This document shows positions 105 to 22,667 of a stretch of DNA of 41,390 nucleotides, piece after piece; the stretch's first letter is position 1, and the number at the start of each line of letters is the position of its first letter. The translations under genes were made by a program, and so were the position numbers. Source of the DNA: Paracoccaceae bacterium (GTDB taxonomy: Bacteria; Pseudomonadota; Alphaproteobacteria; Rhodobacterales; Rhodobacteraceae); assembly GCA_013214575.1 (NCBI GenBank), contig JABSSD010000198.1:1-41390 (forward strand), given 5' to 3'. Under the pieces are notes generated by a model. That model worked only from the letters and a program-made list of their open reading frames with translations. It was not told the origin of the DNA and did no database searches.

Positions 105-1070
105 TTGAAGCCCGCCTGTCTGATGAAGACCAGGACAATATCGTCGCTGAGCTGGAAGACTGGCGGCATTAACCAGATCAAGTCTGGCGGTGGCGACGAC
201 ACCATCACTACCGGCTCAGGTGCCGATAAAATCGACGGCGGTGACGGCAACGACAATATTAATGCCGGTGACGGCAGTAACCAGATCAAGTCTGGCAGCG
301 GCAACGATACGATCCTCTCGGGATTGGGCGATGACAAGATCGACGCCGGCTTGGGAGATGACCTGGTCAGCGCTGGCGAAGGGCGCAACCAGATCAAGAC
401 TTTCGGTGGTGACGACACCATCACCACGGGCTCTGGTGCCGACAAGATTGACGGCGGTGATGGCAACGACAGCATCACCAGTGATGGCGGGCACAACTGG
501 ATCAAAGGCGGTGACGGACAGGACTGGATCCAAACCGGGGCTGGCAACGACAAGCTCTACGGCGGCAAGGGCAATGACACCATAAACGCCGGCGCTGGCA
601 ACGACAGCATCTACGGCGGCGATGACGATGATGTGATTGATGGCGGCGCCGGCATGGACCGGATCGCAGGAGACGCAGGCAACGATACCCTTGCCGGCGG
701 AAGTGGTGTGGATCTGATCAATGGCGGTACCGGCAACGACCGGATCATCGGCGGCATCGATGCCGATATCCTCACCGGCGGCTCGGGAGCGGATGTCTTT
801 GTCTTCGCCGGGCTGGATGAACTGGGCGATACCATCAAAGATTTTTCGTTCAGCGACGGGGATGTGCTGGAGATTTCAGGTTTCCTCGAGGCAATGGGCA
901 GTGATCTGGTGACCGCTCTGGCAGCGGACTTGCTAAGCCTAAATGGTACAAGGTCTGCCGCATGGCTGGAATTTGATGCCGATGGTGCAGGCGGCGAGGA
1001 CGCAATCCAGATCGCGTATCTCCAACGGGTCAATGCAGCGGAGGAGATTTCAAGCGATTGGTTCGCATAG
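105..1070 (+). CDS. RTX calcium-binding repeat protein, probable type I secretion substrate
   Basis: Most of the 321 residues are glycine/aspartate-rich nonapeptides of the GGxGxDxIx type (about residues 25-235), which fold into Ca2+-binding beta-rolls in RTX proteins. The last ~90 residues match the usual C-terminal region of such proteins (FVF, then DTIKDF, then GDVLEISGF), which carries the type I secretion signal. The protein is therefore probably exported by an ABC/TolC system and folds outside the cell; no transporter gene is in the window. The first half shows a 36-residue higher-order repeat. The start is unsure: TTG at 105 lies 13 nt after AAGGAGGGG, and ATG at 123 is in frame. The first ~20 residues do not look RTX-like, whereas a neighbouring frame there reads as an acidic peptide ending LEDWRH, so the gene may be truncated or frameshifted at its 5' end. 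Function (adhesin, enzyme or structural) is unknown because no catalytic domain is present. Confidence 0.75.
171..602 (+). repeat. 108-bp (36-residue) higher-order repeat in the RTX gene
   Basis: The motif AACCAGATCAAG (N-Q-I-K) occurs at 171, 279 and 387, and a variant (N-W-I-K) occurs at 495, exactly 108 nt apart each time. One unit equals four RTX nonapeptides. Units 1 and 3 are the most alike, including the peptide [16 protein letters not shown], which suggests that a 216-bp block was duplicated. Confidence 0.8.
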
Positions 1071-1137
1071 GCATTGATGTGCCCAGGTGGGGCAGAGCAA
1101 TCCCACCTAGCTGGTCCTGAACCTTGGTGCCGGATCT

Positions 1138-1323
1138 TTGGCCCACAGTGGCGATGGCCCTGGTGGCCCACAGCGGCGATGGCTCTGGGGGGCGGTGGGC
1201 GAAGCCGATCCCCGATTGCTTGCAACGGGCCTGACAACGCCGGGCGTTGACTTTGCGCGGGTCACTCCGCGCCAAGCCAGGCGGTCTGCCAGCCGCATCA
1301 ACGCCACCCGCGGGCAATCGTGA
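1138..1323 (+). pseudogene. Possible remnant of an IS110-type transposase
   Basis: The forward frame ending at 1323 contains the peptide GVDFARVTPRQARRSA, which resembles the segment of IS110-family (DEDD) transposases in which a G-x-x-F-x-x-V-x-P-x-Q-A-R-x-F-A motif precedes the AKTD-x-x-DA motif. The latter is absent and the frame stops soon after, so at most a short decayed piece is left. No terminal repeats or target duplication can be pointed to. The reading rests on one short motif from memory. The rest of 1071-1560 contains no credible gene. Confidence 0.3.
1140..1189 (+). repeat. 25-bp tandem duplication
   Basis: Two adjacent 25-bp units, both starting GGCCCACAG and continuing GGCGATGGC, lie at 1140-1164 and 1165-1189 and differ at three positions. 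They sit in the non-coding stretch behind the RTX gene. Confidence 0.75.
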
Positions 1324-2438: not shown

Positions 2439-2484
2439 ACAGACACAGACACAGACACAGACTCAGACACAGACACAGACACAG
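2439..2484. repeat. Hexanucleotide microsatellite (ACAGAC)n
   Basis: About 7.7 copies of ACAGAC run from 2439 to 2484, with one substituted unit (TCAGAC). It lies in the 320-bp gene-free stretch 2305-2624 between the sulfotransferase remnant and the acetyltransferase gene. No frame across it looks like a real protein; the frames give HR, DT or SV dipeptide runs only. I see nothing else in that stretch. Confidence 0.9.
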
Positions 2485-4091: not shown

Positions 4092-4120
4092 GGGATTTGA
4101 GTATTTTTGGCAAAAAGATG
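4092..4120 (+). repeat. Short interspersed intergenic repeat, copy A
   Basis: GGGATTTGAGTATTTTTGGC followed by AAAAAGATG. It shares the core GTATTTtnGgnnaaGAtGaag with copies at 12983, 21817 and 22031. It lies between nucleoside hydrolase and mazG, just past the mazG 3' end. Confidence 0.6.
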
Positions 4121-12982: not shown

Positions 12983-13015
12983 GCCTCCGGCGGGGATATT
13001 TGCAGCCAGATGAAG
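12983..13015 (+). repeat. Short interspersed intergenic repeat, copy B
   Basis: GCCTCCGGCGGGGATATTTG then CAGCCAGATGAAG. It has the same GCCTCCGGCGG head as copy D and the same tail type as the others. It ends 3 bp before the pdxA stop codon (minus-strand gene). Confidence 0.75.
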
Positions 13016-19810: not shown

Positions 19811-21310
19811 ATGAGCCATCTGACACCAATCCGTTTTGTCGATTACGACCCCAAGTCACTGTCAGAACAGGTCGGGCGTCTGGTGATCCTGATCACCCCC
19901 GAGGGCATCATGGATCACGCTGGGCGCAGCGCCAACCGTCTGAGCAAAGGCGCCGTGGCGCGGCTCATCGCCAGCGACAGTTTTACAAAGGCCAAGACCG
20001 GTCAGATCATCTCGCTGGGCTGGCCTGCGGGCCTGCAGGTCGAAGCGTTGGATGTGCTGGTATTGCCACGCCGGGTCACTCCGATCGAAGCCCGCAAGGC
20101 CGGTGCGGCCCTGGCCAAAATTGGGGCCGGTAAGGTCATGACGGTGATGGCTGGATCAATGCCCAAAGCGGCGGATCTGGCGCTTGGTATTGCTCTGCGC
20201 AGTTATTCTTTCGATCAGCATAAAACGGCCCAGGACAGCAAGACAGTCGAGGCCGTGGTGATTGCGCATAAGGCGCATGAAGAGATTGCTGCGAAATTTG
20301 CACCGATGCTGGCGGTGGCCGAAGGCGTCCACATGACCCGCGATCTGATCAATGAGCCGGCCAATGTACTGACCACAACCGAATTCGCCAATCGCCTGGT
20401 TGAGATGGAAGCCATCGGCCTGAAGGTCGAGGTGCTGGACGAGCCGCAGCTGGAAGAGCTGGGGATGCGCTCGCTGCTCTGTGTGGGGCAGGGGTCCGAT
20501 AGCCCTTCCAAAGTGGTGATCATGCAGTGGAATGGCGGCCTTGAGGGCGAGGCTCCGCTGGCGCTGGTCGGCAAGGGCGTGGTGTTTGACACCGGCGGTA
20601 TCTCATTGAAACCGGCGGGCGGCATGGAAGATATGACCATGGACATGGGCGGTGCGGGCGTGGTGGCCGGCACCATGCGGGCGCTGGCGCTGCGTGGCGC
20701 CAAGGCCAATGTGGTTGGCTTGGTTGGGCTGGTGGAAAACATGCCCTCTGGCAATGCCACCCGCCCCGGTGATGTGGTGACCTCGATGAAGGGGGACACC
20801 ATCGAGGTGATCAACACCGATGCCGAAGGTCGTTTGGTGCTCTGCGATGTGATGTGGTACACGCAGGAGCGGTTCAACCCGGTTGCGATGATTGACCTCG
20901 CGACCCTGACAGGGGCTATTATCGTTGGGTTGGGCCATGAAAATGCCGGCGTGTTTTCAAACAATGACGCGCTGTGCAATGCCTTTCTCAAAGCCGCGGC
21001 TGCCGAAGATGAAGGCGCTTGGCGGATGCCCCTGGGCAAGGGCTACGATGATCTGATTAAATCCCGCATCGCGGATATTAAGAACACCGGCGGCCGCGCC
21101 GCGGGTTCCGTTACCGCAGCCCAGTTCCTGAAGCGGTTCGTCACGGACGAGACCCCTTGGATTCACCTGGATATTGCCGGCGTTGCCTCGGTCAAATCAG
21201 ACACCACCTATGCGCCCAAGGGGGCCACCGGCTGGGGAGTGTCTGCGCTGAACCGGCTGGTATACACCGGATTCGAGACGCAGACCGAGACGCAGACCGA
21301 GACGGAGTGA
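19811..21310 (+). CDS. pepA: Leucyl aminopeptidase (M17)
   Basis: A 499-residue cytosolic aminopeptidase using two divalent metals. Metal and catalytic residues are visible: VGKGVVFDTGGISLKP (253-268, with Lys255 and Asp260) and INTDAEGRL (334-342), the family signature. An N-terminal macro-like domain precedes the catalytic domain. It removes N-terminal residues in peptide turnover; in some bacteria PepA also binds DNA. The ATG at 19811 follows GGAG. The protein ends in a low-complexity tail, ETQTETQTETE, made by an in-frame hexanucleotide repeat and not typical of the family. holC follows 7 bp later, so the two are probably cotranscribed. Confidence 0.96.
   Translation: MSHLTPIRFVDYDPKSLSEQVGRLVILITPEGIMDHAGRSANRLSKGAVARLIASDSFTKAKTGQIISLGWPAGLQVEALDVLVLPRRVTPIEARKAGAALAKIGAGKVMTVMAGSMPKAADLALGIALRSYSFDQHKTAQDSKTVEAVVIAHKAHEEIAAKFAPMLAVAEGVHMTRDLINEPANVLTTTEFANRLVEMEAIGLKVEVLDEPQLEELGMRSLLCVGQGSDSPSKVVIMQWNGGLEGEAPLALVGKGVVFDTGGISLKPAGGMEDMTMDMGGAGVVAGTMRALALRGAKANVVGLVGLVENMPSGNATRPGDVVTSMKGDTIEVINTDAEGRLVLCDVMWYTQERFNPVAMIDLATLTGAIIVGLGHENAGVFSNNDALCNAFLKAAAAEDEGAWRMPLGKGYDDLIKSRIADIKNTGGRAAGSVTAAQFLKRFVTDETPWIHLDIAGVASVKSDTTYAPKGATGWGVSALNRLVYTGFETQTETQTETE
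21275..21304 (+). repeat. Hexanucleotide repeat at the 3' end of pepA
   Basis: Alternating GAGACG and CAGACC units (five hexamers) encode the Glu-Thr/Gln-Thr tail just before the pepA stop. The NAGACN core is shared with the microsatellite at 2439-2484. Confidence 0.85.
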
Positions 21311-21779: not shown

Positions 21780-21812
21780 CAGGGGCGCTGCCCCTCTTGG
21801 CCTGCGGCCAAT
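21780..21812 (+). terminator. Two adjacent hairpins behind holC
   Basis: GGGGC-GCT-GCCCC followed by TTGGCC-TGC-GGCCAA lie within 35 bp of the holC stop. Neither has a T-run, so they may act as a weak terminator or as 3'-end protection. Confidence 0.45.
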
Positions 21813-21816
21813 TCAC

Positions 21817-21841
21817 CCTGAGGTATTTTGGACAAGAAGAA
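21817..21841 (+). repeat. Short interspersed intergenic repeat, copy C
   Basis: CCTGAGGTATTTTGGACAAG then AAGAA; it matches copy D (opposite strand) over GAGGTATTTnnnACAAGAAGAA. Confidence 0.75.
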
Positions 21842-21859
21842 GCCGGGCTGGCTCTTCCC

Positions 21860-21875
21860 TTAACCGAACGTTAAC
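21860..21875 (+). promoter_or_regulatory. CtrA-type binding site (TTAA-N7-TTAA)
   Basis: TTAACCGAACGTTAACC contains TTAA, exactly seven bases, then TTAA followed by C, the full consensus for the alphaproteobacterial cell-cycle regulator CtrA. It is not in front of a conventional gene: the next plus-strand features are a strong hairpin and a terminator. The site is nearly symmetric and could act either way. Chance occurrence cannot be excluded, but an 8-base match plus the flanking C residues is suggestive in GC-rich DNA. Confidence 0.55.
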
Positions 21876-21890
21876 CAAGATCTGATCTTG
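21876..21890. promoter_or_regulatory. 15-bp palindrome next to the CtrA-type site
   Basis: CAAGATC-T-GATCTTG is a perfect odd-centred palindrome starting directly after the CtrA-type box. It could be a second operator or a short hairpin at the 5' end of the presumed transcript. Confidence 0.5.
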
Positions 21891-21919
21891 TTCCTTGTGC
21901 GGTACAGGCTGAGGAGCCA

Positions 21920-21988
21920 ATGACCGCACAAGGAGAAGCCTCGCTGCGCGACCCATCTGCGTCACGTGGCGGGGTGCCTAGCGATTAG
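21920..21988 (+). CDS. Possible 22-residue peptide inside the structured region
   Basis: ATG 21920 with GAGGAG at 21911-21916 opens a 22-codon frame (MTAQGEASLRDPSASRGG and four more residues) ending TAG at 21986-21988. Both the Shine-Dalgarno sequence and the start codon sit in the loop of the 12-bp hairpin. Composition alone cannot show that it is translated. Confidence 0.2.
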   Translation: MTAQGEASLRDPSASRGGVPSD

Positions 21989-22030
21989 CCTTAAAGTGTC
22001 TTGCCACCGATGTGGGCGCCGCCTGTTATT

Positions 22031-22060
22031 CTTCTTGTTTCAAATACCTCCGCCGGAGGC
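22031..22060 (-). repeat. Short interspersed intergenic repeat, copy D
   Basis: On the minus strand it reads GCCTCCGGCGGAGGTATTTG then AAACAAGAAG, with an internal CCTCCG/CGGAGG hairpin. It lies just behind the end of the minus-strand protease gene. Confidence 0.75.
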
Positions 22061-22083
22061 CTGCGCCAACAGGCGCATTTTTT
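22061..22083 (+). terminator. Intrinsic terminator, plus strand
   Basis: TGCGCC-AACA-GGCGCA followed directly by T6 (22078-22083). Its polarity fits a plus-strand transcript coming from the 21.9-kb region or from holC; for the minus-strand protease gene the T-run is on the wrong side. Confidence 0.8.
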
Positions 22084-22085
22084 GG

Positions 22086-22667
22086 TTAGCGGGTCAAGAC
22101 CAACGAGCCGTTGCGAATTTCAATGCTGGACCAGCGTTGAAGATAGCTCATACCAAGCAGCGATTGGTCCAACTCGCCCTGGTTGACCCAGACCCGGACA
22201 TTTTTGTCAGTGATGGGGCCCAGTGAAATACTGTCAAGCCAGACCGAGGCGGTGCGCACCTCTCCGTTGGCGGTGTTGGCGCGGCCCAGGTAGGCCAGGG
22301 TATCAGGGTCTATTCCGGCCCTGCGCGCATCTTTTGCGTTCAATACAACATCGGTGGCACCGGTATCGACCAGAAAGGTGATGGGCACGGAATTGATGTG
22401 GAGAGTCAGATAATAGTGACCGTCGGCTGAGCGTGGTACCGAGATCTGGCCGCTGTTGCGGATCACGGATTGTTGCGAAAGGACCGTGCGGCGGATGTCA
22501 TCCCAGAGCCCATAACCTGCAATCACGCCCAGAAAGATAAAGGCCCAAATGGCGAGCTGCTGTATTGTTTTTCCCAGCTGCTGGCGGTTTTGTACAAACA
22601 CCCAAGACCCCACAGCCGCCAGCATCAGCACAAGGTAGATCACCCGGCCGTAATCGACATCTGTCAT
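22086..22667 (-). CDS. Membrane-anchored retropepsin-like aspartic protease (TIGR02281 type)
   Basis: 193 residues from ATG 22667, preceded by AGGAGG at 22674-22679. Two hydrophobic helices near the N-terminus (about 7-25 and 37-55) anchor a soluble domain with the retroviral-protease-like active site FLVDTGATDVVL (near 98-109) and a late LLGMSYL flap-like motif. Proteases of this clan act as dimers, with one Asp from each subunit. The physiological substrate is unknown. It stands apart from marC by 45 bp on the same strand, so cotranscription with the marC/ABC-F pair is possible. Confidence 0.85.
   Translation of the reverse strand: MTDVDYGRVIYLVLMLAAVGSWVFVQNRQQLGKTIQQLAIWAFIFLGVIAGYGLWDDIRRTVLSQQSVIRNSGQISVPRSADGHYYLTLHINSVPITFLVDTGATDVVLNAKDARRAGIDPDTLAYLGRANTANGEVRTASVWLDSISLGPITDKNVRVWVNQGELDQSLLGMSYLQRWSSIEIRNGSLVLTR

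What the first reader, a model, noticed from the sequence alone, without database searches (positions are those of the whole stretch)
21860..22083. CtrA-type box driving a possible structured small RNA or hairpin-masked 22-aa leader
In a 309-bp gap without a conventional gene, five signals line up on the plus strand: a full TTAA-N7-TTAA CtrA motif, a 15-bp palindrome, a perfect 12-bp inverted repeat whose loop contains a second 4-bp hairpin, GAGGAG and an ATG, a 22-codon frame, and an intrinsic terminator with T6. The arrangement suggests a cell-cycle-controlled transcript of about 190 nt, either a non-coding RNA with an exposed GAGG loop or a peptide whose start sits in a hairpin loop. I do not recognise it as a known family.
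Basis: partly seen in the sequence, partly recalled or inferred. Interest (0 to 1): 0.7.

Follow-up and report, generated by a model that had tools for sequence, protein, structure and literature searches.

The report
Guide-like RNA matching dispersed genome sites
The gap holds a gene for a small structured RNA of a bacterial family not found described, whose loop and tail spell out, in two pieces, the sequence of dozens of short sites scattered at gene ends in the same genome, and the two change together in evolution, as a guide and its targets would.

Summary
The RNA starts at about 21899 with a hairpin, GCGGUACAGGC-K-GNNN-M-GCCGAUGACCGC, then a 10-11 nt arm. The hairpin occurs in 147 of 198 genomes of the family, one per genus, in other families of the class, and on plasmids. 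No Rfam family matches. The last three loop letters and the arm match, at fixed spacing, a dispersed site: NNN-TATTT-n3-arm. Loop equals NNN in 142 of 153 elements. Different guides of one genome have different site families: 22 exact copies for the window's, 59 for another. Between two congeners, sites whose guide is shared survive in place (9 of 9) though n3 varies; of 8 sites whose guide is absent, 5 are gone and 3 rewritten to match a resident guide. A written prediction (arm position 3 C to T) was met in one genome and in a broken guide of a second. Best reading: a trans-acting two-part guide RNA. DNA or RNA target, partner protein and effect are unknown, and some sites persist where no guide was found.

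The parts
21780..21820 (+). REP-like module before the upstream site (GGGGCGCTGCCCC..GGCCTGCGGCC..CACCCTG), repeated through the genome and family
   Evidence: blastn hits to query 1-68 in several places per genome
21821..21842 (+). upstream site copy: AGG-TATTT-TGG-ACAAGAAGAAG
   Evidence: one of 22 exact TATTTNNNNCAAGAAGAAG copies in the genome; 20 of 22 preceded by AGG
21860..21876 (+). CtrA-type box TTAACCGAACGTTAACC; half-sites start 39 and 28 nt before the hairpin, the usual places in relatives
21899..21927 (+). conserved 5' hairpin of the RNA (predicted 5' end at about 21899)
   Evidence: pattern and covariance searches, stem covariation
21911..21914 (+). tetraloop GAGG; its last three letters (AGG) equal the NNN of the cognate sites
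21928..21938 (+). arm ACAAGGAGAAG: matches the site arm ACAAGAAGAAG except for the usual A-to-G change at position 6
21939..22028 (+). variable middle of the RNA (inner hairpin and linker), poorly conserved
   Evidence: listing, by eye; fold (z -0.95, not significant by itself)
22029..22049 (-). downstream site copy, inverted: AGG-TATTT-GAA-ACAAGAAGAA; in the RNA it can pair with the arm and, as a pseudoknot, with the loop
22062..22083 (+). G+C hairpin with T6; also kept beside the protease gene where the RNA is absent (G007)
4099..4119 (+). solo site GAG-TATTT-TTG-GCAAAAAGAT, cognate of another guide of this genome (contig C23, loop GGAG, arm GCAAAGAGAAG)
12994..13014 (+). solo site GGA-TATTT-GCA-GCCAGATGAA, cognate of the guide on contig C85 (loop GGGA, arm GCCAGGTGAAG)

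Best explanation
The locus encodes a small RNA, transcribed from about 21899 and probably under CtrA control, that belongs to a new family of trans-acting two-part guide RNAs. Shown by sequence: a conserved 5' hairpin presents three variable loop letters, and a 10-11 nt arm follows directly. Together they equal, at fixed spacing, the site NNN-TATTT-n3-arm that recurs at gene ends, and guide and sites change together. Inferred: the RNA pairs with the strand complementary to the site (5'-arm'-n3-AAATA-NNN'-3'). The arm forms the main helix, the loop a 3-bp helix, and AAATA runs along the hairpin, as in an H-type pseudoknot. The RNA's own 3' copy can occupy the same place in cis. Also inferred: the target is somewhat more likely the DNA site than an mRNA, with an unknown partner protein, and binding marks or insulates gene ends (termination, roadblock or chromosome/plasmid organisation). 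Shares of belief: RNA family 0.95; two-part guide-site coupling 0.9; pairing in trans 0.75; DNA rather than RNA 0.55; any particular effect 0.3 or less.
For: Family. Coupling: loop equals NNN in 142 of 153 (upstream) and 140 of 147 (downstream), including rare triplets AAG, AGA, TGG, CCG, CGG, GCG. An arm match of at least 8 of 12 was found upstream for 153 of 176, against a mean of 49 and a maximum of 57 when the site is taken from another element; spacing is 3 nt in 147 of 153. Of 141 distinct loop-arm combinations, 133 have a matching site nearby. Trans sites: 20 of 22 exact copies with AGG; 28 of 30 read (of 59 exact) with GGA; 7 of 7 with GAG. Census: 26 of 27 G003 sites belong to three of its four guides, and all 20 G004 sites belong to its two. 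Orthologous gaps: 9 of 9 kept when the guide is shared; 0 of 8 keep their family when it is absent, 3 of the 8 switched in place. Prediction: G001 arm GCTGGGTGAA has the predicted T at position 3; the G005 remnant arm GCTAGGTGAA is as predicted. Plasmids: 5 of 6 inspected guides have a cognate site on the fetched stretch, all five with the right NNN; permuted arms give 0-0.02 per stretch. Sites in +|+ (3) and -|- (4) orientation are all kept, which speaks for DNA.
Against: No expression data, no partner protein, no phenotype. Most elements carry an inverted downstream copy in the RNA itself, so part of the covariation can be explained by cis folding. G006's guide (GCCAAATGAA) mismatches its sites at one letter and lacks the usual A-to-G change. 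Sites persist where no cognate guide was found: one in G002 (genome 85% complete), two in G005 (guide broken), and the same AGG/ACAAG site in both G006 and G007. G003 has one site of G004's type, which fits none of G003's guides exactly, and none counted for its fourth guide. G054 has a repeat hit but no guide by pattern or model. 7 of 176 elements have no matching site in the stretch examined, and an eighth (L121) is just below the cut-off. The fold of the window RNA is not more stable than shuffles (z -0.95).
Confidence: 0.6

Rival explanations
1. A MITE/REP-like mobile element: the RNA gene is cargo between inverted ends, and the dispersed sites are other copies of the ends; guide and site match only through common descent or gene conversion.
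For: The RNA is flanked by inverted copies; sites often sit beside REP-like hairpins; congener G007 lacks the whole interval between GAGG-like letters, and four other congeners have no guide at this place.
Against: Only two short segments match, one of them inside a hairpin loop, with a systematic A-to-G difference at arm position 6 (120 of 153). Solo sites are kept at orthologous places with n3 free to vary (14 of 27 letters the same, against 90 of 90 in the arm; the motif figure is biased upwards by the search). Three sites switched family in place to match a resident guide.
Confidence: 0.15
2. A conventional trans-acting antisense sRNA: the RNA pairs with the 3' UTRs of mRNAs that carry the complement (arm'-n3-AAAUA-NNN') and stabilises or destabilises them.
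For: Of 52 clearly placed sites read in the own genome 13 are -|- and 18 convergent, so complementary RNA would exist after one gene; in several, arm' begins right after the stop codon.
Against: 18 of 52 are +|+, where the mRNA has the same sense as the guide, and the three such sites with a shared guide are kept. A +|+ site at a gene end also occurs in G006, G007 and G002. Guides whose site lies only in direct orientation have no complementary transcript evident nearby.
Confidence: 0.17
3. A self-contained structural RNA: loop and arm pair only with its own 3' end, and other copies of the repeat are irrelevant.
For: A downstream inverted copy matches in 147 of 176 elements and can form the outer helix and pseudoknot.
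Against: The upstream copy, outside the predicted transcript, matches equally often (153 of 176). Some members, by eye, end in an ordinary terminator without the downstream copy (L120, L121, L301, L307, L453, L456). Distant sites follow the guides.
Confidence: 0.05
4. A stand-alone guide for a trans-encoded recombinase or transposase (bridge-RNA or seekRNA like), the sites being integration targets or scars.
For: Two-part guide, several specificities per genome, presence on plasmids, absence of the interval in G007.
Against: No recurrent transposase recognised by eye in the 25 largest neighbour clusters (not searched by family); sites are uninterrupted and conserved in place.
Confidence: 0.08

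Closest known systems
IS110 bridge RNA / IS1111 seekRNA (abstracts and section lists of PMC11208160 and PMC11187229 read)
   Same: Short non-coding RNA with guide segments that correspond to a DNA site
   Different: Those RNAs are encoded in the IS with a transposase and direct recombination; here no transposase is linked in the window, sites are not interrupted, and a fixed TATTT plus free n3 lies between the two segments
REP elements and REP-derived RNAs such as E. coli naRNA4/REP325 (recalled; PMC6907758 seen in a listing, passages of PMC12306157 seen)
   Same: Palindromic dispersed elements at gene 3' ends, and an RNA related to them
   Different: Here separate guide genes with a conserved hairpin match several site families by loop and arm, and sites follow guides in evolution; the REP survey's main text has no occurrence of Rhodobacter, Roseobacter or Paracoccus
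TIGR-Tas (start of abstract seen in a listing)
   Same: Modular RNA-guided DNA targeting found by sequence mining
   Different: Tandem guide arrays with a Tas protein; no array seen here
CtrA-controlled small RNAs of alphaproteobacteria (recalled)
   Same: CtrA-type box at the promoter
   Different: No sequence relation tested; many members have only a half-site and some have none, and the outgroup members listed show no obvious box by eye

Membership tests
Any of 4227 Rfam families | Covariance-model score at or above gathering threshold | tested here: not met
   0 matches in the whole window; the only hit up to E 5 in 21780-22100 is a microRNA model on the minus strand at E 0.38, 18 bits against 100
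IS110/IS1111 bridge RNA or seekRNA | RNA encoded next to a transposase within an IS | tested here: not met
For relatives only the 25 largest neighbour clusters were looked at by eye
IS110/IS1111 bridge RNA or seekRNA | Guide segments covary with a DNA site | tested here: met
   Loop and arm covary with NNN and site arm; this is works-like, not membership
IS110/IS1111 bridge RNA or seekRNA | Binds its recombinase and directs recombination | not testable with these tools
   Needs biochemistry
CtrA-regulated small RNA | CtrA-type box at the promoter | tested here: met
   TTAA-N7-TTAA in the window; half-sites in relatives concentrated 27-28 and 38-39 nt before the hairpin
CtrA-regulated small RNA | CtrA-dependent expression | not testable with these tools
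   No expression data
Leader peptide / small protein gene | Conserved reading frame with ribosome site | tested here: not met
   Frame length 3-940 codons over 174 relatives; tetraloop varies
REP/RAYT system | Dispersed palindromes served by a Y1 (RAYT) transposase | not tested
   Palindromes present; RAYT presence was not searched
TIGR-Tas or CRISPR-type array | Tandem guide array with effector gene | tested here: not met
   Single hairpin units, by eye no array in the listed flanks; effector genes were not searched

The most novel reading that the evidence does not exclude
A widespread RNA-guided DNA-recognition system without a linked nuclease or transposase: small CtrA-controlled guide RNAs, several per genome and also plasmid-borne, each read dozens of chromosomal sites through a 3-nt loop plus a 10-nt arm around a fixed TATTT, and genomes rewrite sites in place when guides change.
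Probability: 0.42. Interest if true: 0.96.

Novelty: categorically new. Interest (0 to 1): 0.88.

Why it matters
If right, a large bacterial family and its plasmids use base-pairing guide RNAs to address sets of sites at gene ends, a way of naming genomic sites that I know only from defence and transposition (recalled). The site grammar makes it testable: changing three loop letters and a few arm letters should move the RNA from one site family to another. It also suggests a function for a class of intergenic repeats that look like ordinary REP elements.

Tried and rejected
Leader peptide and SD-in-loop: rejected, frame and loop not conserved. The 12-bp stem: its lower part is a coincidence of this locus. 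Known RNA family: none. Phage origin: no match in the phage collection, and no exact pattern match in IMG/VR. A 70-aa protein beside many relatives as partner: no Pfam or NCBIfam match, and no such neighbour was seen at the window's copy, so not pursued. Recent insertion of solo sites: the window's two solo sites are also in congeners, so no young insertion could be dated. Strand bias relative to replication: glanced at from listed positions, nothing clear, not computed. Weak model hits at 22-27 bits: L388 and L392 judged chance, L386 undecided, L387 read as a broken guide; G056 and G082, missed by the pattern, have clear guides by model. Five Sphingobium plasmid hits lie inside acrB and are probably chance. 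A first, mis-spaced site pattern for the C85 guide found nothing. Literature searches; only listings and abstract starts were seen except for the papers named.

The 176 elements were chosen by an exact hairpin pattern from loci L001-L207 and de-duplicated, so the invariance of hairpin letters is partly by construction; 174 with enough upstream sequence were used. Alignment A1 used 83 of 165 distinct sequences. Of 74 GCCAG-type sites (59 exact), 30 were read. Of 27 G003 sites, 18 had an orthologous gap in G004; 9 were left out. In one search the looser pattern also gave chance hits (reversed control up to 5 per genome), so only hits with 0-1 mismatches were taken as guides.

Full report
1. What is in the gap. 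A blastn of the gap in 147 genomes (own included) matched 70 and showed separate modules. A 65-bp repeat at 21780-21847 occurs in several places per genome. A core at about 21897-21945 is conserved in other genera, often in other genomic places; the commonest lies between a glutathione-transferase-like and an acyl-CoA-dehydrogenase-like gene (names by eye).

2. The RNA family. With 66 bases of the core, 175 of 295 family genomes match at E <= 0.01 (at most three candidates per genome were scored). The hairpin pattern with up to 3 mismatches is in 147 of 198 genomes, one per genus, with up to 5 copies; the reversed pattern gave 0 in the rows listed. The own genome has four: contigs C110 (the window), C85, C23 and C140. 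Rfam has no match. A covariance model of hairpin plus arm finds 12 of 289 genomes of the class, 8 of them in other families. Of 14 genomes with no pattern hit, it finds clear guides in 2 (G056, G082), one weak hit (G014) and one chance hit (G045). On A1, 99.9% of hairpin cells pair, against 93.2% in shuffles. Two of nine pairs show changes on both sides, a number the shuffles also reach, while cells changed on both sides are 48 against 17. Outgroup members add further changes of the lower stem (by eye).

3. Promoter. In 174 relatives TTAA is concentrated 27-28 nt (107 occurrences) and 38-39 nt (35) before the hairpin. TTAAC within 20-60 nt is in 111 (shuffled mean 5.7) and [GT]TAA-N7-TTAA in 37 (shuffled mean 0.16). 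An A at -11 (65%) and a T at -7 (75%) suggest a -10 element and a start at the hairpin's first base; the window itself has T at both places. The window's box lies at the usual places. Many relatives have only one half-site and some none.

4. The two-part match. Flanking most elements is the sequence NNN-TATTT-n3-arm: upstream in the same orientation, and usually downstream inverted. The loop's last three letters equal NNN in 142 of 153 upstream and 140 of 147 downstream sites with an arm match. Shuffling loops among elements gives far fewer matches: at least 3 of 4 letters, observed 142 of 150, shuffled mean 53, maximum 70. The arm matches at 8 or more of 12 positions in 153 of 176 upstream and 147 of 176 downstream, against means of 49 and 50 when the site comes from another element. 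It starts 3 nt after TATTT in 147 of 153 and 135 of 147. Position 6 is A in the site and G in the RNA in 120 of 153, so pairing with the complement would use a G-U wobble there. There are 113 distinct arms and 141 distinct loop-arm combinations; 133 of 141 have a matching site nearby. Eight of 176 elements have none at that cut-off.

5. Dispersed sites. In the own genome TATTTNNNNCAAGAAGAAG occurs 22 times exactly, and 20 are preceded by AGG, as the window guide's loop requires. TATTTNNNGCCAGATGAA (guide C85) occurs 59 times exactly and 74 times with up to one mismatch; of 30 read, 28 are preceded by GGA. TATTTNNNCAAAGAAGAAG (guide C140) occurs 3 times exactly and 7 times with up to one mismatch, all 7 after GAG. 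Reversed-pattern controls were 0. The C23 guide's family was not counted genome-wide; the window holds one such site. Of the 59 sites read, 52 could be placed between called genes: 18 convergent, 18 +|+, 13 -|-, 3 divergent; 4 lay inside a called frame and 3 had a flank missing. So they sit mostly at gene 3' ends, in either orientation.

6. Guide and sites change together. In 800 kb of G003 and 860 kb of G004 the site census with up to 2 mismatches is as follows. G003: 9 ACAAG-, 11 GCCAG-, 6 GCAAA- and 1 AAAAG-type. G004: 13 GCCAG- and 7 AAAAG-type. Reversed arms give 0. G003's guides are the first three types plus CAAAG; G004's are GCCAG and AAAAG. So G003's single AAAAG-type site has no exact guide there (its CAAAG guide differs at two letters), and no site was counted for that guide. 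Of the 27 G003 sites, 18 have an orthologous gap in G004. The 9 whose guide is in both genomes are all kept: 3 +|+, 4 -|-, 2 convergent. In these, the arm is identical at 90 of 90 letters, NNN-TATTT at 71 of 72, n3 at 14 of 27, the next 20 nt at 100 of 180, and the 30 nt before at 227 of 270. The motif figures are biased upwards because sites were found by the motif. Of 8 whose guide G004 lacks, none is kept: 3 are replaced in place by a site for a guide that G004 has, and 5 are degraded or absent. The single AAAAG-type site is kept. Among seven congeners the two solo sites of the window are intact in all 8 cases with the guide (G004's has one change in TATTT); without it 3 are degraded and 3 intact. 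A third site, ACAAG-type, is present in G006 and G007 although neither has that guide. Cases are related and few, so I give no probability.

7. A prediction. Before looking, I noted that G001 and G005 carry GCTAGATGAA (one copy GCTAGATAAA) in place of GCCAGATGAA at two orthologous sites, and predicted a guide with loop GGGA and arm GCTAG(G)TGAA. G001's guide has loop GGGA and reads GCTGGGTGAA: the predicted T at position 3, with a further A-to-G at position 4. G005 has no intact guide found, but a remnant whose hairpin lost its 5' half and whose arm reads GCTAGGTGAA. G006's guide GCCAAATGAA is an exception to the A-to-G rule and has one mismatch to its sites.

8. Coming and going. In congener G007 the interval from site to site is missing between holC and the protease, leaving ...CACCC-GGAGGC..., while the T6 hairpin remains. 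G001, G005 and G006 have short gaps without the RNA; in G004 the two genes are about 9 kb apart; none of the four has a guide at this place. G002 and G003 have it.

9. Plasmids and other families. A plasmid search found 35 records at E <= 0.1; five lie inside acrB and are probably chance. I inspected six plasmids of 17-60 kb, two of them from Hyphomicrobiales. Five of six guides have a cognate site on the fetched stretch, all five with the right NNN (permuted arms 0-0.02). Two of the five sites lie about 1 kb away, so the match is not only that of a neighbouring repeat. In contigs of other families of the class, some guides lie beside plasmid-type genes: Rep3 (2), RPA, ParA-like, MobA/MobL and HigB, among the ten proteins searched.

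10. How it probably works. The complement of the site, 5'-arm'-n3-AAATA-NNN'-3', can pair with arm and loop while AAATA runs along the hairpin. That is the geometry of an H-type pseudoknot and would explain a fixed TATTT and a free n3 (inference). The RNA's own downstream copy can form the same contacts in cis; the predicted fold of the window RNA contains the hairpin and the outer helix, though its stability is not above shuffles. Sites in +|+ orientation are as well kept as those in -|- orientation, and several guides have only a direct-orientation site nearby, so an mRNA target alone does not suffice and DNA is favoured, weakly. A partner protein is expected but not found. What binding does at gene ends is open: roadblock or termination, insulation, and chromosome or plasmid organisation are all possible.

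11. Known kinds. Bridge RNA and seekRNA (abstracts read) share the guide principle but are IS-encoded with a transposase, which is not the case in the window. The REP survey (passages of PMC12306157) has no occurrence of Rhodobacter, Roseobacter or Paracoccus. Eight searches of the open library listed no paper whose title or abstract start describes such an RNA; most hits were seen in listings only, and subscription papers are not covered.

Noticed in passing
L387 (G005:C21:30520-30554): A guide gene that lost the 5' half of its hairpin, apparently by deletion between two GGCGGGGA copies, one in the upstream site and one in the loop; two cognate sites are still intact, so the loss looks recent.
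   Followed up: partly
L009, L021, L022 and 36 other loci (cluster 3): A conserved 70-aa protein near the guide at the commonest locus; a blended sequence of it has no Pfam or NCBIfam match.
   Followed up: partly
window 2450-2483 and 21260-21310: Short tandem repeats (CACAGA units; CGCAGACCGAGA units at the end of the pepA-like gene) that differ in length from the congener G003.
   Followed up: no
window 161-1145: A stretch that aligns to several shifted places in G003, as a tandemly repeated region would.
   Followed up: no
PLSDB listing, two Legionella plasmid records: The hairpin query also matches on two Legionella plasmids; seen in the listing only.
   Followed up: no
G006, G007 and G002 regions: An AGG/ACAAG site 4-5 nt after a stop codon (overlapping the gene end in G002) and about 80 nt before the next gene, with no G+C hairpin before it, +|+ oriented in three congeners: the hairpin is not an obligatory part of the site, and G006 and G007 keep it without that guide.
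   Followed up: partly
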